64,000 nt of DNA from an uncultured Bacilli bacterium (lineage in GTDB: Bacteria > Bacillota_I > Bacilli_A > RF39 > UBA660): contig CALWAL010000005.1 in assembly GCA_944373145.1 (NCBI GenBank), forward strand, positions 1-64,000. Direction: 5' to 3'. The stretch's first letter is position 1. Each line of letters begins with the position of its first letter. The notes under the pieces were generated by a model. It searched no databases. It saw only the letters and a list, made by a program, of their open reading frames with translations, and was not told the origin of the DNA. The translations under genes were made by a program, and so were the position numbers. Below are positions 17,166 to 47,728 of the stretch, piece after piece.

Positions 17166-18075
17166 AAAAAACGCTGTTTCAAGAGTGATGTTTGTAAGTA
17201 TACTTACAAATATCTTTTTAGCTATTACGAAAATTATTGTAGGTGTTGTTGCTCATTCCACCGCTTTAGTTGCTGATGGAATTCATTCCTTTAGTGATTT
17301 GGCAACTGATTTTTTTGCTGTTTTAGGTAATTTTTTAGCGCTCAAACCGGCTGATAAAGAACATCCTTTTGGTCATGGTAAAATTGAGTATTTAACAAGT
17401 ATAATTATTGGAACAGTTGTTTTTGTTATTGGCTTTGGGGTAATTATTAATGCTTTTAATAGTGAAGTTATTATTCCAAGTAAAATTGTTATTATTGTAA
17501 CAATTATCACAATAATTGCTAAATTTTTATTATCAAGTTATATTATAAAAAAAGGTGAAGCTTATCACAATAACATTTTAATAGCTAGCGGTAAAGAAAG
17601 TCGAACTGATGTTATTAGTTCAGTATTCGTTTTAATTGCTTCAATTTTAATTCAATTTAGTAATCAAATATCTTTTTTAAAATATGCTGATATTGTAGCT
17701 TCTATAATTGTTGGATTATTTATTATTAAAACTGGCTTTTTCATTATTAAAGAAAATATTAGTGTCATATTAGGAGAACAAGAAAATAATAAAGAATTTT
17801 TAGGAAGATTAAAAAGTATTATTTTAAAGAATGATGAGGTTTATTCAATAAGATCAATGATTATTTTAAAATTTGGGCATATTGTCACTCTAGATTTAGT
17901 TATTATTATGAACGGTGATATAACACTTAAAGAAGCCCATGAAATTGTTGATAAAATTGAACATAATATTAAAGAATTTGATCAAAGAATAGAACATATG
18001 AATATTCATATGGAGCCAAATACAATATTGACAAATAAGAAAAAAAAGGTTAAAATACAATCAATAAATCAATGA
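17152..18075 (+). CDS. Cation diffusion facilitator family metal efflux protein
   Basis: CDF transporters exchange Zn, Mn, Fe or similar ions for protons. The TM2 signature 'HSTALVADGIHSFSDLATDF' contains the His/Asp metal site, and 'EHPFGHGKIEY' follows as in most members. About six hydrophobic segments span residues 10-205, then a cytoplasmic C-terminal domain with 'IEHMNIHMEP'. It is translationally coupled to the phosphatase gene by a 14-base overlap. The metal cannot be fixed from sequence. Confidence 0.9.
   Translation: MAEGKKNAVSRVMFVSILTNIFLAITKIIVGVVAHSTALVADGIHSFSDLATDFFAVLGNFLALKPADKEHPFGHGKIEYLTSIIIGTVVFVIGFGVIINAFNSEVIIPSKIVIIVTIITIIAKFLLSSYIIKKGEAYHNNILIASGKESRTDVISSVFVLIASILIQFSNQISFLKYADIVASIIVGLFIIKTGFFIIKENISVILGEQENNKEFLGRLKSIILKNDEVYSIRSMIILKFGHIVTLDLVIIMNGDITLKEAHEIVDKIEHNIKEFDQRIEHMNIHMEPNTILTNKKKKVKIQSINQ
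18028..18055 (+). promoter_or_regulatory. Promoter for the serine T-box transcript
   Basis: TTGACA (18028-18033), a 16-base spacer and TAAAAT (18050-18055), inside the last codons of the efflux gene. Confidence 0.6.
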
Positions 18076-18259
18076 CGAAGACTAGTAACAAAATTTAAAT
18101 TGTGTAAAGAGAACTTATGGTTGGTGTAAATAAGTGACAATATTTTGTGAATCTACTTTGAAGAGAAATGAAAACATTTCCGGTGAAAGCCGTTATCTTA
18201 ATTAAGACTAAAATAGGATGGTACCGCGTTTTGACGCTCCTAGTTTTTAGTCTTTTTTT
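18076..18259 (+). promoter_or_regulatory. Serine T-box leader
   Basis: The antiterminator T-box 'AGGATGGTACCGCG' is clear near 18215-18229. It is followed by a terminator in which GACTAAAATAGGA pairs with TCCTAGTTTTTAGTC, then seven T residues. In 'GAATCTACTTTGAAG' the specifier reads TCT (Ser) when aligned with the leucine T-box at 44327, where the same place reads CTT. Uncharged tRNA-Ser would stabilise the antiterminator and switch on the HD hydrolase and serS. Confidence 0.93.
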
Positions 18260-18776: not shown

Positions 18777-20062
18777 TAGATATAAAATTAATTAGAGAAA
18801 ATAGAGATTTAGTAAAAGAAAATATTAAGAAAAAATTTCAAGATCATAAATTACCGTTAGTTGATGAAATTTATGAATTAGATATCAAATATCGTGAAGC
18901 TAAACAAGAAGGAGATAATTTAAGAGCCGAAAAAAATAATAAAAGCGCTTTAATTGGTAATTTAATGCGTGAAGGTAAAAAAGAAGAAGCTAATAAAATT
19001 AAAGAAGAAATCTCTTTAGATGGCAAACGTATTGAAGAGTTAAATATTAAAGAAGAGGAATTAGCTAATGAGATAAAGAAAAAAATGATGGTAATTCCTA
19101 ATATTATTGATGATAGTGTACCAATCGGAAAAGATGATACAGAAAATGTAGAGAATGAAAGATTTGGTGAACCAGTTGTTCCTGATTTTGAAGTTCCATA
19201 TCATGCTGATATTATGGAAAATTTATGCGGACTTGATAAAGATTCTTCTGGAAGAACAAGTGGTAATGGCTTTTATTATTTGATGGGTGATGTAGCTAGA
19301 ATTCATTCAGCAATGTTAAGTTATGCTCGTGATTATATGATTGACCATGGATTTACTTATTGTATTCCACCATTCATGATTAGGAGTGATGTAGTAACTG
19401 GTGTCATGAGTTTTGAAGAAATGGATGCTATGATGTACAAAATAGAAGGTGAAGACTTGTTCCTAATTGGTACTAGTGAGCATTCGATGATTGGAAAATT
19501 TAAAGATCAATTATTAAAAAGAGAAAATTTACCATATACTTTAACAAGTTATTCTCCATGTTTTAGAAAAGAAGTAGGCGCTCATGGTATTGAAGAACGA
19601 GGTGTATATCGTGTTCATCAATTTGAAAAACAAGAAATGGTAGTTATTTGTGAACCAGAAGATTCTATGAATTGGTATAATAAAATGTGGAAATTGACGG
19701 TTGATTTCTTTCGCAGTATAGATATTCCAGTTCGAACTTTGGAATGTTGCAGTGGAGATTTAGCCGATTTAAAAGTTAAATCTTGTGATATTGAAGCTTG
19801 GAGTCCACGCCAACAAAAATATTTTGAAGTTGGTAGTTGTTCAACTTTAGGCGATGCTCAAGCAAGACGTTTAGGTATTAGGGCTAAAGGTGAAAACGGT
19901 AATTATTATCTTCATACTTTAAATAATACAGTCTTAGCAACCCCACGTGGTTTAATCGCCTTTTTAGAAAATAATGTTAATGCTGATGGTAGTGTTAATA
20001 TACCGGTAGCTTTAAGACCATATATGGGTGGAATAGAAATTGTAAAGCCTAAACAAAAATAA
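18773..20062 (+). CDS. serS: Seryl-tRNA synthetase
   Basis: Class II synthetase charging tRNA-Ser. Residues 1-110 form the Lys/Glu-rich coiled-coil arm that holds the tRNA. Catalytic motifs are present: 'GTSEHSMIG', 'CFRKEVGAHG...GVYRVHQFEKQEM' (motif 2) and 'LNNTVLATPRGLIAFLE' (motif 3). 429 residues is normal. Controlled by the upstream T-box, with the start overlapping the HD gene. Confidence 0.97.
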   Translation: MIDIKLIRENRDLVKENIKKKFQDHKLPLVDEIYELDIKYREAKQEGDNLRAEKNNKSALIGNLMREGKKEEANKIKEEISLDGKRIEELNIKEEELANEIKKKMMVIPNIIDDSVPIGKDDTENVENERFGEPVVPDFEVPYHADIMENLCGLDKDSSGRTSGNGFYYLMGDVARIHSAMLSYARDYMIDHGFTYCIPPFMIRSDVVTGVMSFEEMDAMMYKIEGEDLFLIGTSEHSMIGKFKDQLLKRENLPYTLTSYSPCFRKEVGAHGIEERGVYRVHQFEKQEMVVICEPEDSMNWYNKMWKLTVDFFRSIDIPVRTLECCSGDLADLKVKSCDIEAWSPRQQKYFEVGSCSTLGDAQARRLGIRAKGENGNYYLHTLNNTVLATPRGLIAFLENNVNADGSVNIPVALRPYMGGIEIVKPKQK

Positions 20063-20074
20063 TTAATTAAATTA

Positions 20075-20100
20075 AAATAGACATAATTGTCTATTTTTTT
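20075..20100 (+). terminator. Intrinsic terminator after serS
   Basis: AAATAGACA-TAAT-TGTCTATTT is followed by T residues. Confidence 0.8.
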
Positions 20101-20128
20101 GTGTAAGATATTTTAAATGCTATAAAAT

Positions 20129-20157
20129 TTGACAAAAATAAATTATTGTGTTAAAGT
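20129..20157 (+). promoter_or_regulatory. Promoter of the lysine riboswitch transcript
   Basis: TTGACA (20129-20134), 17 bases, TAAAGT (20152-20157). This and the riboswitch fill most of the 350-base gap between serS and the next gene. Confidence 0.7.
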
Positions 20158-20165
20158 GATTACCA

Positions 20166-20401
20166 ATCGAAAGAGGTTGCGTTACTTATGAGTAATTATC
20201 ATTTATTCAGATTATTGGTGATAATGAAAGGAAGTAATGCCGAAATAAAATAAGGTATCTGAACTTATTTTGTTGGGGCAGTTACATAATATGGACTGGA
20301 CTGTCACAAGAAAAAACTTGTGGAGCGCTTTCAAGATAACAAACTAGAGTTTTTGTGTTCTCTTTTTGTTGATTTTGTGCGCTCACGAAATCAATTTTTT
20401 T
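20166..20401 (+). promoter_or_regulatory. Lysine riboswitch (L box) with terminator
   Basis: Aptamer landmarks match the L box: 'GAAAGAGGTTGCG' at the 5' side of P1, 'TGAAAGGAAGTAATGCCGAA', 'TTGGGGCAGTTAC', 'GGACTGTCAC', and the closing 'GGAGCGCTTTC'. P1 pairs GAAAG (20169-20173) with CTTTC. A terminator follows: TTGATTTTGTG (20369-20379) pairs with CACGAAATCAA (20384-20394), then seven T residues. GAGCGC (20323-20328) can instead pair with GCGCTC (20379-20384), giving the antiterminator. Lysine should turn the downstream gene off. Confidence 0.9.
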
Positions 20402-20415
20402 AAAGGAGAATATTT

Positions 20416-21102
20416 ATGATACAAACAATTTCTTATAGTGATATTGAAGGAAAATATGATTCAGAAAACTCTAATTGGGGAAGCAGCGCTAAAGTCTTTT
20501 TCATGGTTGAAGGCGAAGATTTTAATAATATGGTATATAAAAATTATTTATGGCCTATTGCTTTAGATAGAAAAACATCGCGAAATATTACTTATTTGGA
20601 ACACTTAACCAATTTAGCTAATATAAATTCAGAAGTTTTAATGACACCCAAAGTGGCTGTTACCAATCCTTTAGCAATCGTAGGAATTGTCATGAATAAA
20701 GCGCCTGGTGAATTACTTAGCAATCAAGATATTTCTATTAGCCAGCTTGTTAATGTTCAAAATCAAATTAGAGAAGCAATTATTGATATATCAACGCAAT
20801 TTGAAATATTTGATTTAAATGCTGGTTCAATTTTTTTTAGTTTTGATGAAGGCATTACTTTAGTTGATTCAGAAAGTTATATGGAAGCTTCTGGTGATTA
20901 TTCATTTATTAATTTATACCGCTTTTATACAAAAATAGTTGAAATATTAAATTATGTGCCAGAATTAAAGGCACGAATTTGTGAGGAATTAAAGCGAGGT
21001 ATTGATTTTTGCCGTTTAGAAGCAATTTATGATGTTGTCATGCAATATTTAAAAGAACATAATTTAAAAGAAGAAGAAGCAAAAGTGTTAGTTAAAAAAT
21101 AA
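20416..21102 (+). CDS. Unrecognised kinase-like protein under lysine riboswitch control
   Basis: 228 residues, no signal peptide or membrane segment. I do not recognise the family. 'DLNAGSIFF...ITLVDSESY' near residues 138-158 resembles the catalytic loop and metal-binding Asp of protein-kinase or APH folds (DLxxxN, then DxE), but the loop Asn is Ser. The N-terminal part with 'YLEHLTNL' and 'VGIVMNKAPGELL' could be an N-lobe and hinge. It is the only gene under the riboswitch, since the next is on the other strand. It is not an obvious lysine enzyme or transporter. Confidence 0.6.
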   Translation: MIQTISYSDIEGKYDSENSNWGSSAKVFFMVEGEDFNNMVYKNYLWPIALDRKTSRNITYLEHLTNLANINSEVLMTPKVAVTNPLAIVGIVMNKAPGELLSNQDISISQLVNVQNQIREAIIDISTQFEIFDLNAGSIFFSFDEGITLVDSESYMEASGDYSFINLYRFYTKIVEILNYVPELKARICEELKRGIDFCRLEAIYDVVMQYLKEHNLKEEEAKVLVKK

Positions 21103-21136
21103 AAAAATATCTAAACTAATATAAGTTAGATATTTT
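21103..21136. terminator. Bidirectional terminator
   Basis: AAAAATATCTAA/TTAGATATTTTT sits between convergent genes. Confidence 0.7.
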
Positions 21137-22197
21137 TATTTTACTTTCTGTTTCATTTCTTTTACAAAACGTTTGTAAGGCTCTAATGTAGGAGGCGGAA
21201 CAAATTTAAATTTCTTACTAAAAAGTAGTTGGTTAAAAATTAATATTCCATTAAGATCATTTTGCTTTAACATATCTCTAATTTCAATAGCTTTTAAAAA
21301 TGAAAATAAATAACCTAAACTTTCACTAATTTCTGGATTAGTAAATTCTTCTGTTAACAGTTCTAATAATTCCTCACCATAAATACCGGTTATATCACTA
21401 AAAGTGTTTAAAAAGAGTTCATCATCTATATCAAAATCAAATTTTTCAAACACACTAAGGCAGTATACATATACTTTTAAAATTTTCAAAAAATCTTCTG
21501 TATCTTGAATGCGTTCTAAAGGGGTTGCTAAGGCTTTTTTCCCGTAACTTTTAAAAGTTTGATCAGAAAAAATTAATTCAAAATAGATGGGACCTAATTC
21601 ATGATAAAAAATGTGAGTAGGAATATCTTTTAAGTATTCAATACCGTGTTGAATTTCGTGCGTTAAAACAGACGCGTCATCTTTACTATTAATGATAATC
21701 ATTGGTAAATCTAAAAGGCTACTATAAAAGCAAAAAGATGATGAATCTGTTTTAGTATAGTGGATTAGACTAATCTTTTCACTTAAAAGAGCTTCTGCTT
21801 GAAGAAAAAAGTGAGGGGCTTGATTTCCATACAAAGTTAGTGTTTCATCCGCCATAGTATCTATACTTAATTTAAAACGTGGAATATATTGTCCATATCT
21901 AAAAATATTAGACTGTTGTAAATTTATAAGCCATTCACGAAATTCGCGATTAAATAAACGCCTATATTTTTTCATACTAGCTAAGACACTTTTTTTTATC
22001 ATTGGAAGTGATAAATGACGATAAGTACTAGTGGTTTCAAAATCTCCATTAATAAATCTTTTGAACCGAGAAATATCGCTTTTGATTTCTGCTTTTTCTT
22101 GAGAAGTTAAATCATTATGTTCTAAATAGTACTTACCAATACAAATTGTTTCCTGAAGAAGTTGTTCATTAAATTTCCATTTTCGCAATCTAACCAC
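21136..22197 (-). CDS. Putative zinc metalloprotease, HExxH type
   Basis: 353 residues, mostly helical. 'LTHEIQHGIEYL' near residue 190 is the HExxH zinc site, and 'YHELGPIYFELIF' about 22 residues later offers a third-ligand Glu, the layout of M3-like gluzincins. It is shorter than oligoendopeptidase F (about 600) and shares only the catalytic core. No signal peptide is seen, so it is cytoplasmic or a peptide-degrading enzyme. The start at 22197 follows a GGAGTGG-like RBS. Confidence 0.6.
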   Translation of the reverse strand: MVRLRKWKFNEQLLQETICIGKYYLEHNDLTSQEKAEIKSDISRFKRFINGDFETTSTYRHLSLPMIKKSVLASMKKYRRLFNREFREWLINLQQSNIFRYGQYIPRFKLSIDTMADETLTLYGNQAPHFFLQAEALLSEKISLIHYTKTDSSSFCFYSSLLDLPMIIINSKDDASVLTHEIQHGIEYLKDIPTHIFYHELGPIYFELIFSDQTFKSYGKKALATPLERIQDTEDFLKILKVYVYCLSVFEKFDFDIDDELFLNTFSDITGIYGEELLELLTEEFTNPEISESLGYLFSFLKAIEIRDMLKQNDLNGILIFNQLLFSKKFKFVPPPTLEPYKRFVKEMKQKVK

Positions 22198-22291: not shown

Positions 22292-23593
22292 ATGTTAAAA
22301 TGTGATTCTAGGTTAATTAAACCTGGTGATACGTTTATTGCTTTACATGGAGAAGTATATGATGGACATCAGTTTATCTTAGATGCAATCAATAAAGGTG
22401 CTAAAGAAGTTATTGCTGAATATGGGGAATATAGTGTTCCTACTCATATCGTTTTATCAACCAAAAAATATTTAAATGAGTATTTGCACAACAATTTACC
22501 TAGTATCAAAATAATAGGTGTAACAGGTACTAATGGTAAAACAACAACTTGTTATTTAATATGGCAAATTTTTAAACAGTTAAATATAAAATGTGCTTAT
22601 ATTGGTACTTTAGGTTTTTATTTAAATGAGAAAGTACGAGATTTAACCAATACAACTCCAGGTAGTATTGAATTATTTAATTTAATAAAAGAAGCTTATG
22701 AAAATGATTGTGAATATATTGTTATGGAAGTAAGTAGTCAAGCCTTAAGTCAAGGCAGAGTTGATTTTTTAAATTTTGACTTTGCTATTTTTACTAATTT
22801 AACACAGGATCATTTAGATTATCATAAAACAATGGAAAATTATGTAAAAGCCAAACAAAAGTTATTTTATTTATTAAAAGATAACGGAGTAGGCATAATA
22901 AATATAGATGATGTTTGTTCTAGTTATTTTCAAATTAATAATTATTTAACTTATGGTTATTCTGAATGTGATTATCAAATAACTGATAAAAAAGACTTTG
23001 AAATTAATGATGAAGAATATCAAATGAAATTATTAGGAAAATATAATATTTATAATATGACAGCGGCTATATGTTTGTTTTATCAATTAGGTTATAATCA
23101 CCAAGATTTATATAAATGTATTCAAAAATGTTTTCCACCAGAAGGTCGATTAGATTTAATTAGTAAAAATAATAAACAAGTTATTGTGGATTATGCGCAT
23201 ACACCGGATGCTGTTTTTAGTGTTTTAGAGTGTATTCGAAATTTAGATTATGATAAAATAATTACAGTTATTGGTTGTGGTGGTAATCGTGATAAAAAGA
23301 AAAGACCAATAATGGGAGAGATTGCTACGAAATATTCAGACTATGTAATATTTACTAGTGATAATCCAAGAGATGAAGATCCAGATGATATAATTAAAGA
23401 TATTGTTTGTAATCTTGACAATGATAATTATGAAATTGAGTCAAATCGTGAGATTGCTATTAAAAAAGGTATACAACTAATTGGAAAAAATGATATACTT
23501 ATATTGCTTGGAAAGGGACATGAAAAATATCAAATTATAAAACAAGAAAAGATATTTTTTGATGATAAATTAGTGGCACTAAATAATATGTAG
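22292..23593 (+). CDS. murE: UDP-MurNAc tripeptide ligase, DAP type
   Basis: Adds the third amino acid to UDP-MurNAc-L-Ala-D-Glu in peptidoglycan synthesis. 'GVTGTNGKTTT' near residue 78 is the ATP-binding loop, 'VMEVSSQALSQGR' and 'TNLTQDHLDYH' the Mur ligase core, and 'FTSDNPRDEDP' the DNPR motif that recognises meso-diaminopimelate. At 433 residues it is about 50 shorter than usual, mostly in the N-terminal UDP-binding domain. mraY follows after 11 bases. Confidence 0.94.
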   Translation: MLKCDSRLIKPGDTFIALHGEVYDGHQFILDAINKGAKEVIAEYGEYSVPTHIVLSTKKYLNEYLHNNLPSIKIIGVTGTNGKTTTCYLIWQIFKQLNIKCAYIGTLGFYLNEKVRDLTNTTPGSIELFNLIKEAYENDCEYIVMEVSSQALSQGRVDFLNFDFAIFTNLTQDHLDYHKTMENYVKAKQKLFYLLKDNGVGIINIDDVCSSYFQINNYLTYGYSECDYQITDKKDFEINDEEYQMKLLGKYNIYNMTAAICLFYQLGYNHQDLYKCIQKCFPPEGRLDLISKNNKQVIVDYAHTPDAVFSVLECIRNLDYDKIITVIGCGGNRDKKKRPIMGEIATKYSDYVIFTSDNPRDEDPDDIIKDIVCNLDNDNYEIESNREIAIKKGIQLIGKNDILILLGKGHEKYQIIKQEKIFFDDKLVALNNM

Positions 23594-44319: not shown

Positions 44320-44326
44320 ATTGGTC

Positions 44327-44527
44327 ATAAGGCGATGAAGAAGAGTAGTAATAATGGTGTAGGTTAAGAGAGAAAGTGGTCGGTGCAAACTTTTGCTACT
44401 AAATTATGAACTTGCTTTGGAGCTACTTGAAGTCGTATTTCTGCGTTAAAGAATAAAGTGCATAATTAAAGTATTATGAAGAAGGGTGGTACCGCGAATA
44501 TTCGTCCCTTCATTCGTAATACTTTTT
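44327..44527 (+). promoter_or_regulatory. Leucine T-box leader
   Basis: 'AAGGGTGGTACCGCG' (44482-44496) is the T-box. GAAGGG pairs with CCCTTC and AGTATTA with TAATACT to give the terminator, followed by TTTTTT. The specifier in 'GAACTTGCTTTGGAGC' reads CTT (Leu), consistent with leuS downstream. Confidence 0.93.
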
Positions 44528-44544
44528 TATTATAAGGAGGATTT

Positions 44545-44919
44545 ATGGAGTTAATCGTTTGGCTAATTATGCTAGTGGTTATTTATTTATTTTATGAATT
44601 GTTTGTAATTCGCAAAGATAAAGCTTTGGAAAATATGAAAAGAGGTACAGAATTAACTTTATTAAAGCGAAAATACAAATTAGATTTGGGACGATTGTCA
44701 GTAAAAAAATTAGTCCGTGTAATTGGTATTACTAATGCTTTTATTATATCTACTGTTGTATCAATTGTTTGTTTATTGCAAGATTTTATTGAAAGTACCT
44801 TATTATGGATGTTAGCTGTTATCGGTGTTGGTATTGTTTTATTAATACCGTTAATTTTAATTTGTTATTCATTGATAGGAAAACATTATCAGAAAGTACA
44901 GGAGGGAAAAAATGTATAA
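44545..44919 (+). CDS. Small membrane protein ahead of leuS
   Basis: 124 residues with three hydrophobic segments (about 2-20, 61-80, 88-112) and a Lys-rich cytoplasmic loop. I do not recognise the family. It is the first gene under the leucine T-box and its last eight bases overlap leuS, so it is made with LeuRS when leucine is short. A link to leucine uptake or membrane response is possible but unsupported. Confidence 0.55.
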   Translation: MELIVWLIMLVVIYLFYELFVIRKDKALENMKRGTELTLLKRKYKLDLGRLSVKKLVRVIGITNAFIISTVVSIVCLLQDFIESTLLWMLAVIGVGIVLLIPLILICYSLIGKHYQKVQEGKNV

Positions 44920-47728
44920 TTTTAAGAAAATTGAAAAAAAGTGGCAAAAACATTGGGATGAAAATCAAACTTTTTATGCACAAAATAATAGTGATAAAGA
45001 AAAATATTATATTTTAGTAGAATTTCCATATCCGTCAGGAAGTGGATTACACGTTGGACATGTGCGTAGTTATACCGCTTTAGATGCTTATGCTCGTATG
45101 ATGAGGATGAAAAACTATAATGTTTTATTTCCAATGGGATGGGATGCTTTTGGAGCACCTGCTGAACAATATGCAATTAAAAATCATATTCATCCTAAAG
45201 AAGCAGTAAAAGAAAATATCAAGACATTTAAAGGACAAATTAAAGATTTAGGTATTTCTTTTGATTGGAGTAGAGAATTTTCTACAACGGATCCAGAATA
45301 TTATAAATGGACACAATGGCAGTTTTTACAATTTTATAAGCATGGAATGGCTTATAAAGCGCGTAAAGATATTAATTGGTGTCCAAATTGTAAAACCGGG
45401 TTATCTAATGAAGATTCAAGTGGCGGCGTTTGTGAGCGCTGTGGTTCAAAAGTTGTTCAAAAGGAAAAGGAACAATGGATGTTACGCATGAGTGATTATG
45501 CTGAAGATTTATTAACCGGTTTAAATGATACGAAATTTGCTGACCGTATTAAATTAGGACAAATTAATTGGATTGGTAAAAGTACGGGTGCTGAAGTTAA
45601 ATTTAAAGTTAAAGATACTAGTGAATTATTAACGGTATATACAACAAGACCAGATACTTTATACGGTGTAACATTTATGGTTGTAGCACCGGAACATCCA
45701 ATAATAGAAACTTTAAAAGACAAGATTCAAAATATGGATGAAGTTAGAGAGTATCAAAAATTTGCTAAAAGTAAAACAGAGTTTGAACGTACTGAATTAG
45801 TTAAAGAAAAAACGGGAGTAGCTTTAAAGGGTATAAGCGCGATTAATCCAGTAAATGGTGTCGATGTACAAATTTGGATTAGTGATTATGTTATGATGAG
45901 TTATGGAACTGGTGCTATTATGGCAGTACCTGCTCATGATCAACGCGATTATGAATTTGCTCGTAAATTTGGTATTGATATTATTCAAGTTTTAGAAGAA
46001 GTAACTGGTGTTACTAATCCTAATGAAACAAAAAAAGAAAGTATTGTTGCTATTGTTTATGATGAAAAAAATGATAAATATTTAACTATTAATTGGCACG
46101 AATTAGGTGGACGCTTATTTATTGGTGGAACAAGACATAACGGTGAAGATGCTTTAACTTGTGCTTTAAGAGAAATAGCTGAGGAAACTGGTTATGATGA
46201 TTTAGAGCTTGTACGCGAAACATTTAAAATTAATCATCATTATTATGCTTATAATAAAGATAAATATTTTAATATTGAATCTACAGGGTTATTATTCAAG
46301 TTAAAATCTAATCATAAGCTTGAACAGCAGTTAGATGAAGATGAAAAATTCACGGTTGAATGGGTAGGTAAAGATGATATTGAAAAAGAAGTTAAGGATG
46401 AATTACATTTAAAAACATTTACCTATTGTTTAGAAGAAGGCGCTATGGAAGGCGATGGAACACACATTAACTCTGATATTTTAAATGGTCTAAATAAAGA
46501 AGAGGCAATCAATAAAATTATTACTTGGTTAGAAGAGAATAATTTAGGTAAGAAAAAAGTTAATTACCGTTTACAAGATTGGATTTTCTCTCGTCAAAGA
46601 TTTTGGGGTGAACCAATTCCTCTAATTTATTGTGAAGATTGTGGCTGGGTGCCAGTTCCAGAAGAAGAATTACCAGTATTGTTACCTGATGTTGCAGAAT
46701 ATGAACCAACTGATGATGGTGAGTCACCTTTGGCTAATATCGAATCTTGGGTTAATGCTCCTTGTCCACGTTGTGGAAAAATGGGAAGAAGAGAAACAGA
46801 TACAATGCCAAACTGGGCTGGGTCAAGTTGGTACTTCTTAAGATATATGGATGCTCATAATGATAAAGAATTTGTCTCACAAGAAGCTTTAAAATATTGG
46901 GGTAAAGTTAATTGGTACAATGGAGGAATGGAACATACAACTAGACATTTATTATACGCACGTTTTTGGAATCAATTTTTATATAATATTGGCTTAGTAC
47001 CAAATAAAGAACCAGTAGAAATTCGAGTATCACATGGAATGATCTTGGGCTCTAATGGTGAAAAAATGAGTAAATCAAAAGGTAATGTTATTAATCCAGA
47101 TGATATTATTAGTGAAATGGGCGCTGATGCTTTACGTACGTATGAAATGTTTATTGGTGATTACGAAAAGGATGCTTCTTGGTCAACTAATGGGTTGAAA
47201 GGATGTAAAAAATTTTTAGATCGTATTTGGCGTTTACAGGAAAAATTGAACGATAAAGATGGATATTCAAATGAAACATTAGTTCATCAAACAATAAAAA
47301 AAGTAGGTAACGATATTGCTAATATGAAGTATAATACGGCAGTATCCTCATTAATGATTATGTTAAATGAATTAGAAAAATATGATAGTATTACACGTGG
47401 TGATTTACGTATCTTAGTACATTTATTAAATCCGATCGCTCCTCATATTACCGAAGAGATTAATGAGATTAATCAATTAGGAGAACCATTATATGCTTCA
47501 GCTTGGCCTATTTATGATGAGGCAAAGACTATTGAAAGTACTTATGAGATGGTTGTTCAAGTTAATGGTAAAGTACGTGGCAAAATTGAAGTTGATGCGA
47601 ATACAAGTGAAGAAGATATGAAGACTTATGCTATGCAAATTGAAAATGTTAAAGTTTTTACTGATGGCAAAGAAATCGTTAAAGTAATTGTTGTCCCTAA
47701 AAAGCTTGTAAATATTGTTGTTAAATAG
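44912..47728 (+). CDS. leuS: Leucyl-tRNA synthetase with an inserted Nudix domain
   Basis: Class I synthetase. 'LHVGH' (about 46-50), 'TTRPDTLYG' and 'MAVPAHDQRDYEFA' of the editing domain, zinc-type Cys pairs 'CPNC' and 'CERC', and 'KMSKS' near 718 are all intact. Between 'GIDIIQVLEE' and 'EGDGTHINSDILNGL' about 140 extra residues (near 360-500) form a Nudix domain with a perfect box 'GGTRHNGEDALTCALREIAEETGY' shape (GX5EX7REUXEEXGU, residues about 406-428). Total 938 residues against about 805 normally. The insert sits in the editing domain region. Confidence 0.93.
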   Translation: MYNFKKIEKKWQKHWDENQTFYAQNNSDKEKYYILVEFPYPSGSGLHVGHVRSYTALDAYARMMRMKNYNVLFPMGWDAFGAPAEQYAIKNHIHPKEAVKENIKTFKGQIKDLGISFDWSREFSTTDPEYYKWTQWQFLQFYKHGMAYKARKDINWCPNCKTGLSNEDSSGGVCERCGSKVVQKEKEQWMLRMSDYAEDLLTGLNDTKFADRIKLGQINWIGKSTGAEVKFKVKDTSELLTVYTTRPDTLYGVTFMVVAPEHPIIETLKDKIQNMDEVREYQKFAKSKTEFERTELVKEKTGVALKGISAINPVNGVDVQIWISDYVMMSYGTGAIMAVPAHDQRDYEFARKFGIDIIQVLEEVTGVTNPNETKKESIVAIVYDEKNDKYLTINWHELGGRLFIGGTRHNGEDALTCALREIAEETGYDDLELVRETFKINHHYYAYNKDKYFNIESTGLLFKLKSNHKLEQQLDEDEKFTVEWVGKDDIEKEVKDELHLKTFTYCLEEGAMEGDGTHINSDILNGLNKEEAINKIITWLEENNLGKKKVNYRLQDWIFSRQRFWGEPIPLIYCEDCGWVPVPEEELPVLLPDVAEYEPTDDGESPLANIESWVNAPCPRCGKMGRRETDTMPNWAGSSWYFLRYMDAHNDKEFVSQEALKYWGKVNWYNGGMEHTTRHLLYARFWNQFLYNIGLVPNKEPVEIRVSHGMILGSNGEKMSKSKGNVINPDDIISEMGADALRTYEMFIGDYEKDASWSTNGLKGCKKFLDRIWRLQEKLNDKDGYSNETLVHQTIKKVGNDIANMKYNTAVSSLMIMLNELEKYDSITRGDLRILVHLLNPIAPHITEEINEINQLGEPLYASAWPIYDEAKTIESTYEMVVQVNGKVRGKIEVDANTSEEDMKTYAMQIENVKVFTDGKEIVKVIVVPKKLVNIVVK

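What the first reader, a model, noticed from the sequence alone, without database searches (positions are those of the whole stretch)
20129..21102. Lysine riboswitch in front of an unrecognised kinase-like gene
The leader has L-box landmarks and a clear terminator/antiterminator pair. Such riboswitches normally control lysine biosynthesis or transport. Here the only gene is a 228-residue protein with a degenerate kinase-like loop. It could be a new lysine- or DAP-related function, or the original target was lost.
Basis: partly seen in the sequence, partly recalled or inferred. Interest (0 to 1): 0.75.

Follow-up and report, generated by a model that had tools for sequence, protein, structure and literature searches.

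The report
Lysine riboswitch controlling a kinase-like gene
A well-formed RNA sensor for the amino acid lysine sits in front of a single, previously unrecognised kinase-like gene in bacteria that seem unable to make lysine, and the pairing recurs in related species, so the cell probably switches this protein on when lysine runs low.

Summary
Window 20163-20338 is a full-length lysine riboswitch aptamer (RF00168, 116.6 bits against a gathering score of 30). It has a promoter at 20129-20157, a 12-pair terminator at 20368-20395 and a competing antiterminator: the anatomy of a lysine-OFF transcription switch. The gene behind it (20416-21102, 228 aa) has no Pfam, NCBIfam, PHROG or PDB match above threshold. 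Two orthologues (58-59% identity) in another genus of the same family both lie 78-79 bases behind the same riboswitch but beside different neighbours, so 3 of 3 orthologues follow an L box. The gene is under purifying selection. 'Original target lost' is therefore unlikely. Profile comparison places the protein among divergent small protein-kinase-like proteins. It keeps the Lys and two Asp invariant in 25 of 25 relatives, but the invariant catalytic-loop Asn is Ser in all three orthologues. The host genome has this one L box and no detectable dapA. The riboswitch is ordinary; its only target is a new kind of target. The protein's role is inferred, not shown, and the fold could not be modelled.

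The parts
20129..20157 (+). Sigma-70-type promoter, TTGACA - 17 nt - TAAAGT; kept in the orthologous leaders as TTGACA - 17 nt - TAGAAT
   Evidence: spacing in the orthologues read
20163..20338 (+). Lysine riboswitch aptamer (L box), complete
   Evidence: RF00168, 116.6 bits, model 1-182/182
20318..20388 (+). Antiterminator: long hairpin in which GTGGAGCGC (20320-20328; 3' side of P5, J5/1 and start of P1 3' strand) pairs with GCGCTCAC (20379-20386) and the segment between them closes on itself
   Evidence: RNAfold -24.3 kcal/mol; same structure in both orthologues; coordinates
20368..20401 (+). Intrinsic terminator: 12-pair stem (20368-20395), 4-nt loop, then a T run; excludes the antiterminator
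   Evidence: 12 pairs in each of 3 leaders, several changed on both sides
20402..20408 (+). Ribosome-binding site AAAGGAG, 7 nt before the ATG
   Evidence: read from sequence
20416..21102 (+). 228-aa divergent protein-kinase-fold protein; putative ATP Lys42, catalytic Asp133, metal Asp151; catalytic-loop Asn replaced by Ser138
21105..21137 (.). Inverted repeat ATATCTAAACT...AGTTAGATAT between this gene and the convergent gene; probably a shared two-way terminator
   Evidence: read from sequence; not tested by a tool

Best explanation
A transcription-attenuating lysine riboswitch represses one gene when lysine is plentiful. With lysine bound, P1 and P5 hold the 3' strand, the antiterminator cannot form, and the terminator stops transcription before the ATG. 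When lysine is scarce, that strand pairs downstream, the terminator is broken and the 228-aa protein is made. (This logic is inferred from anatomy that is shown and conserved; it was not measured.) The protein is a divergent, compact protein-kinase-fold protein (supported by profile comparison; no confident model). In a cell without detectable lysine synthesis I think it most likely acts as a lysine-starvation regulator: a kinase or pseudokinase that changes the activity of proteins for lysine or peptide uptake, salvage or use. This last step is inference.
For: Riboswitch: 116.6 bits, full length. Mutually exclusive terminator and antiterminator in all 3 leaders, with the terminator kept at 12 pairs in 3 of 3 despite pairs changed on both sides. 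Association: orthologues in G192 (59%) and G372 (58%), both behind RF00168 hits; confirmed on the named contigs CANRVY010000005.1 and CATBQD010000010.1. Different surroundings: serS upstream and a convergent 353-aa ORF in the window, NfeD/SPFH-like and formate-THF-ligase-like genes in the other two, read from the ORF translations. Purifying selection: dN/dS about 0.25, 0.21 and 0.11 for the three pairs. Kinase fold: orthologue profile A1 against small-kinase profile A2, hhalign 96.8%, with an unrelated profile as control at 0.1%. A2 matches solved protein kinases at 5.6e-8. A separately assembled set of 18 small kinases ranks the 3 real sequences above all 6000 shuffles. A1 itself finds a 457-aa protein that passes Pfam's Pkinase cut-off (36.0 against 31.7). 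Lys42, Asp133 and Asp151 align with residues invariant in 25 of 25 relatives. Low-lysine role: one L box per genome and no dapA match in the three carrier genomes. The kinase-linked aptamers are nearest (73-77%) to those of G100 and G127, which precede an unknown protein plus PepD dipeptidase, against about 50% for those outside the family.
Against: The single protein gives no kinase match in Pfam, NCBIfam or PDB, and A1 alone gives none in PDB. hhalign against the family's PrkC-type kinases fails (0.3%). The margin over the best shuffle is small (15.7 against 14.8 bits). A2 was assembled from weak hits of the window protein, so searches are biased towards it; searches are less so. AlphaFold models are unusable (mean pLDDT 36.9 and 39.8). 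The catalytic-loop Asn is Ser, so catalysis is doubtful. No genomic neighbour points to a substrate. Only 3 orthologues are known, and they are patchy: 1 of 12 genomes of the window's genus, 2 of 6 of the other genus.
Confidence: 0.6

Rival explanations
1. The kinase-fold protein phosphorylates a small molecule, for example a modified lysine such as hydroxylysine or fructoselysine, and so frees or salvages lysine when lysine is short.
For: Lysine riboswitches nearly always control genes acting on lysine itself (PMC5584792, sections read). Kinase-fold enzymes that act on such molecules exist (fructosamine-3-kinase, hydroxylysine kinase; recalled, from no call). The carriers lack a dapA match.
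Against: Nearest profiles are protein kinases and Pkinase/Bud32/PrkT-like models for the relatives, not APH or fructosamine kinase. The catalytic-loop Asn is lost.
Confidence: 0.17
2. A special case of the best explanation: the protein is a catalytically dead kinase-fold scaffold or nucleotide sensor (pseudokinase) that acts by binding a partner when lysine is low.
For: Ser at the position that is Asn in 25 of 25 relatives, Glu in place of the second Asp of the DxD motif, and a degenerate Gly-rich loop, in all three orthologues.
Against: Lys42, Asp133 and Asp151 are retained in all three; some active kinases tolerate changes at the Asn (recalled).
Confidence: 0.3
3. Relic: the riboswitch once controlled a lysine gene such as dapA or pepD, that gene was lost, and the present gene sits there by chance.
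For: Within the family the other L boxes precede dapA (3 genomes) or an unknown protein plus PepD (4 genomes). The nearest genome by serS (G008) has neither riboswitch nor gene after serS.
Against: The same riboswitch-gene unit with the same 78-79-base spacing occurs in two genera with different neighbours; terminator pairs are preserved; the gene is under purifying selection.
Confidence: 0.04
4. The protein is not a kinase fold but an unrelated orphan, and the motif match is chance.
For: No direct hit in Pfam, NCBIfam or PDB; poor models.
Against: Several profile comparisons agree and align all the catalytic motifs in order.
Confidence: 0.12

Closest known systems
Lysine riboswitch (L box), Rfam RF00168
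   Same: Full-length aptamer, position in the leader, terminator/antiterminator platform
   Different: Its only downstream gene is kinase-like; the survey read here lists biosynthesis, transport, catabolism and, in a few Mycoplasma, oligoendopeptidase F (PMC5584792)
Small protein-kinase-like proteins of this bacterial family (about 230-340 aa; related to Pfam Pkinase PF00069)
   Same: Size, VxK Lys, catalytic Asp, metal Asp, hinge pattern
   Different: Asn to Ser in the catalytic loop and DxE instead of DxD. None of the 20 other kinase-like loci scanned has a riboswitch; the window group has one in 3 of 3
L box - unknown protein - PepD operon of the same family (G001, G100, G127, G395)
   Same: Sister aptamers for G100 and G127 (73-77% identity); L box before a non-canonical gene
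   Different: Two-gene operon whose first protein is unrelated to the window protein (hhalign 0.1%)
Lysine riboswitch before oligoendopeptidase F in Mycoplasma (PMC5584792, section 12 read)
   Same: L box in a reduced relative controlling something other than synthesis or a known transporter
   Different: A peptidase, not a kinase-like protein

Membership tests
Lysine riboswitch RF00168 | Covariance-model score above the gathering threshold over the whole aptamer | tested here: met
   116.6 against 30 bits, 1-182/182
Lysine riboswitch RF00168 | Expression platform that excludes the aptamer's P1 | tested here: met
   Antiterminator uses the P5/P1 3' strand; terminator forms when that strand is blocked; 3 of 3 leaders (computed, not measured)
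Lysine riboswitch RF00168 | Binds L-lysine and changes termination | not testable with these tools
   Needs in-line probing or in vitro transcription
Lysine riboswitch RF00168 | Controls a gene of lysine synthesis, transport or breakdown (usual, not defining) | tested here: not met
   No such family in the downstream protein
Protein kinase fold (Pkinase PF00069 and relatives) | Direct family match above the curated cut-off | tested here: not met
   Pfam: none for the three orthologues; NCBIfam: none for the two scanned
Protein kinase fold (Pkinase PF00069 and relatives) | Profile-level homology to kinases | tested here: met
   hhalign 96.8% to A2, A2 to PDB kinases 5.6e-8; all 3 above 6000 shuffles; A1 to L116, which passes the Pkinase cut-off. 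The PrkC-only profile failed
Protein kinase fold (Pkinase PF00069 and relatives) | ATP-binding Lys, catalytic Asp, metal-binding Asp | tested here: met
   Lys42, Asp133, Asp151 in 3 of 3; 25 of 25 relatives
Protein kinase fold (Pkinase PF00069 and relatives) | Catalytic-loop Asn | tested here: not met
   Ser138 in 3 of 3; Asn in 25 of 25 relatives
Protein kinase fold (Pkinase PF00069 and relatives) | Two-lobed kinase structure | tested here: inconclusive
   pLDDT 36.9 and 39.8
PD-T4-6 defence kinases (PADLOC) | Profile match | tested here: not met
   0 matches for the window protein and P0001; the two relatives scanned match weakly

The most novel reading that the evidence does not exclude
A riboswitch that does not feed back on a metabolic gene but turns a small molecule's absence directly into the synthesis of a protein-kinase-fold signalling protein: a one-gene lysine-starvation pathway in lysine auxotrophs, carried as a self-contained promoter-riboswitch-kinase unit.
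Probability: 0.35. Interest if true: 0.78.

Novelty: new variant of a known kind. Interest (0 to 1): 0.55.

Why it matters
Lysine riboswitches are used to assign function: what follows one is taken to make, move or break down lysine. Here the conserved and only target is a kinase-fold protein of unknown role in cells with no detectable dapA. Either lysine shortage is being passed to a phosphorylation-type regulator, or a new lysine-salvage enzyme exists. Both can be tested with one small soluble-looking protein and one short leader RNA. With the sister L box - PepD operon, it suggests that lysine riboswitches in these small-genome bacteria have been turned from synthesis to starvation response.

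Tried and rejected
AlphaFold without an alignment and with the two orthologues gave unusable models, so no fold search was run. Direct searches of Pfam, NCBIfam, PHROGs, PADLOC and PDB with the protein found nothing above threshold. Whole-protein scans of genome contigs and viral contigs with the window protein alone found no relative; the three-row alignment found two. Both encode the same protein sequences as G192 and G372, so they are not counted as further orthologues.

A first reading took every locus from the genome search to be turned so that the riboswitch is on the + strand. They are in contig orientation. On that mistaken reading I thought that L018 put an L box before a choline-kinase-like gene; the corrected script shows that it precedes a lysA-like gene. 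That lead was dropped, and a checkpoint note still carries it.

Idea that the small kinases in general are riboswitch-controlled: rejected; 20 of 20 other kinase-like loci scanned hold no riboswitch. Idea that the sister operon's first protein is a relative: rejected. By eye it resembles a GNAT acetyltransferase, but no search supports that. Literature: six searches that pair 'lysine riboswitch' with kinase-like, Tenericutes, protein kinase (twice), peptidase+regulon and Rfam+uncharacterized+metagenom, and two broader ones, riboswitch with pseudokinase or with RF39, listed no paper whose title or shown abstract start describes this. Two papers were opened: PMC5584792 (abstract, outline, sections 12 and 13, passages) and PMC3766115 (passages). 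Subscription papers and supplements were not seen.

Full report
Observation. Window 20163-20338 (+) is a complete lysine riboswitch aptamer: RF00168, 116.6 bits, E 1.9e-30, model 1-182 of 182. It is the only one in the assembly, which has 1.29 Mb in 15 contigs and is 94.9% complete. A TTGACA-17-TAAAGT promoter lies at 20129-20157. The only terminator-like site found in 20050-20420 is a 12-pair stem at 20368-20395 with a T run; shuffles give 0.1 on average. ORF 20416-21102 encodes 228 aa.

How the leader works. Folded alone, the 3' part (from the 3' strand of P5 onward) makes a long antiterminator hairpin in which GUGGAGCGC pairs with GCGCUCAC (-24.3 kcal/mol). If the first 16 bases, which the lysine-bound aptamer would hold, are blocked, the terminator forms instead (-16.5). 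The two orthologous leaders give -26.2/-19.2 and -24.9/-17.2 with the same architecture. The terminator keeps 12 pairs in 3 of 3 leaders, although several pairs differ on both sides between genera. This is the standard lysine-OFF layout; binding and termination were not measured.

Orthologues. Close-relative scans with the single protein found nothing beyond the window in 96 genomes searched as relatives or in two public collections. In 386 genomes of the family, 33 (the window's own included) gave a match at E <= 0.1, but only two besides the window are full-length: G192 (59%) and G372 (58%), both of one other genus. The rest are weak, the best 1.4e-5. Both orthologues lie directly behind RF00168 hits, at a gap of 78-79 bases for the window and G192 and about the same for G372 (read). 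An alignment-based scan of genome contigs returned two loci that encode the same two proteins, on named contigs of an 'uncultured Tenericutes bacterium' and an 'uncultured Bacilli bacterium'. The riboswitches are found there too (110.2 and 114.9 bits). A search of 385 genomes of the order added no further orthologue. Within the genera the gene is patchy: 1 of 12 in the window's genus, 2 of 6 in the other.

A unit that moves or survives alone. In the window the unit lies between serS and a convergent 353-aa ORF. In the other two it lies between NfeD/SPFH-like genes and a formate-THF-ligase-like gene, both read from the ORF translations. In G008, the nearest genome by serS (90-91% identity), serS is followed by something else, and neither riboswitch nor gene was found in that genome. 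The leader from the TTGACA to the start codon is 221/289 identical to G192 and 219/290 to G372; the coding regions are about 66% identical with dN/dS near 0.25 and 0.21, and 0.11 between the two relatives. So the gene is real and selected, and the pairing is conserved.

What the protein is. Nothing matches directly. Several of the weak family hits are small proteins of about 230-250 aa with kinase motifs. Seven such proteins (A2; some are tandem neighbours of the hits) match solved protein kinases (720 distinct sequences at E <= 0.1, best 5.6e-8) and align with the orthologue profile at 96.8%. A control profile gives 0.1%. A2 finds the window protein in its own genome at 1.3e-9; because A2 was chosen through the window protein, this is biased. 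A set of 18 small kinases from genomes that one search had not listed ranks the three true sequences above all 6000 shuffles, though the best shuffle is close (14.8 against 15.7 bits), and hhalign gives 79%; PrkC-type kinases give 0.3%. The orthologue profile alone finds L116 (3.4e-5), a 457-aa protein with GNAT and Pkinase domains above their Pfam cut-offs. In a joint alignment, Lys42, Asp133 and Asp151 fall on residues invariant in 25 of 25 relatives. Ser138 falls on the Asn of 25 of 25, and Glu153 on an Asp of 21 of 25. I take it as a kinase fold, with catalysis uncertain. The predicted structures (mean pLDDT 36.9 and 39.8) say nothing.

Metabolic setting. No DHDPS (dapA, PF00701) match was found in G000, G192 or G372; of the 14 genomes searched only G395, G014, G200 and G222 have one, while all 14 control genomes do. 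No AA_permease_2 match was found in the three either; 2 of 11 searched match, one of them over the cut-off. So the carriers look like lysine auxotrophs without that class of permease. ABC and NhaC-type lysine importers were not searched, and the assemblies are incomplete.

Other L boxes. In the family, 10 of 386 genomes have one hit each. By the first ORF behind it, 3 precede the kinase-like gene, 4 an unknown ~325-aa protein followed by PepD (TIGR01893, 339.0 bits against a cut-off of 343.75, for G001), and 3 a dapA-like gene. In the wider relatives search, 20 of 57 genomes matched with 34 hits; 30 of these became loci and 4 were not examined. Read by eye, the first genes outside the family are transport, lysA, ACT-dapA or lysine-fermentation genes; none is kinase-like. 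The kinase-linked aptamers are 84-94% identical to each other, 73-77% to those of G100 and G127, 59-62% to G001 and at most about 51% to those outside the family. The aptamers of G395 and of L017 were left out of this comparison.

Literature. PMC5584792 (abstract, sections 12 and 13 and passages seen) lists lysine synthesis, transport and breakdown genes, single hypothetical genes judged to be transporters, and oligoendopeptidase F in some Mycoplasma; 'kinase' occurs only once in its main text, in a reference title. PMC3766115 (passages seen) has no occurrence of 'kinase' in its main text. My searches listed no report of a lysine riboswitch before a kinase-like gene. This covers open-licence PMC papers only.

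Judgement. The riboswitch is an ordinary member of RF00168. What is unusual is a conserved, single-gene, kinase-fold target. The step from low lysine to protein made is well supported by anatomy; the step from protein to function is open, and I favour a starvation regulator over a salvage kinase.

Noticed in passing
G001 C21 (L005, L032), G100 C33 (L074, L119), G127 C16 (L077), G395 C48 (L076): A second non-canonical lysine-riboswitch target in the same family: an unknown ~325-aa protein followed by a PepD-type dipeptidase, in four genera; the protein has no Pfam, NCBIfam or PDB match above cut-off.
   Followed up: partly
window 44912-47728: Leucyl-tRNA synthetase with a NUDIX domain (PF00293, 40.7 bits, residues 377-493) inserted next to its editing domain, behind a T-box at 44326-44512 and a small membrane-protein-like ORF.
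   Followed up: partly
window 18063-18244: T-box leader before an HD-domain-like 166-aa ORF and serS; the HD-like gene is also beside serS in G008.
   Followed up: no
window 21136-22197 (-): Convergent 353-aa ORF with an HExxH-like motif (read by eye) and no family match above cut-off; possibly a metallopeptidase.
   Followed up: no
window 22292-23593: Mur ligase with a DNPR motif, which I recall as typical of meso-DAP-adding MurE, in a genome without a detectable dapA: where would the DAP come from?
   Followed up: no
L116 1282-2655 (-): 457-aa protein in G414 that joins a GNAT acetyltransferase domain, a protein kinase domain and an apparent C-terminal membrane segment.
   Followed up: no
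L089 2703-3309 (-): OLE RNA (RF01071, 396 bits) in one of these small-genome relatives, in the same 3.6-kb locus as a small kinase gene.
   Followed up: no
L055 642-2835; L059 1351-3202: Small kinase-like genes in tandem arrays of three in two genomes, which suggests a fast-evolving family.
   Followed up: no
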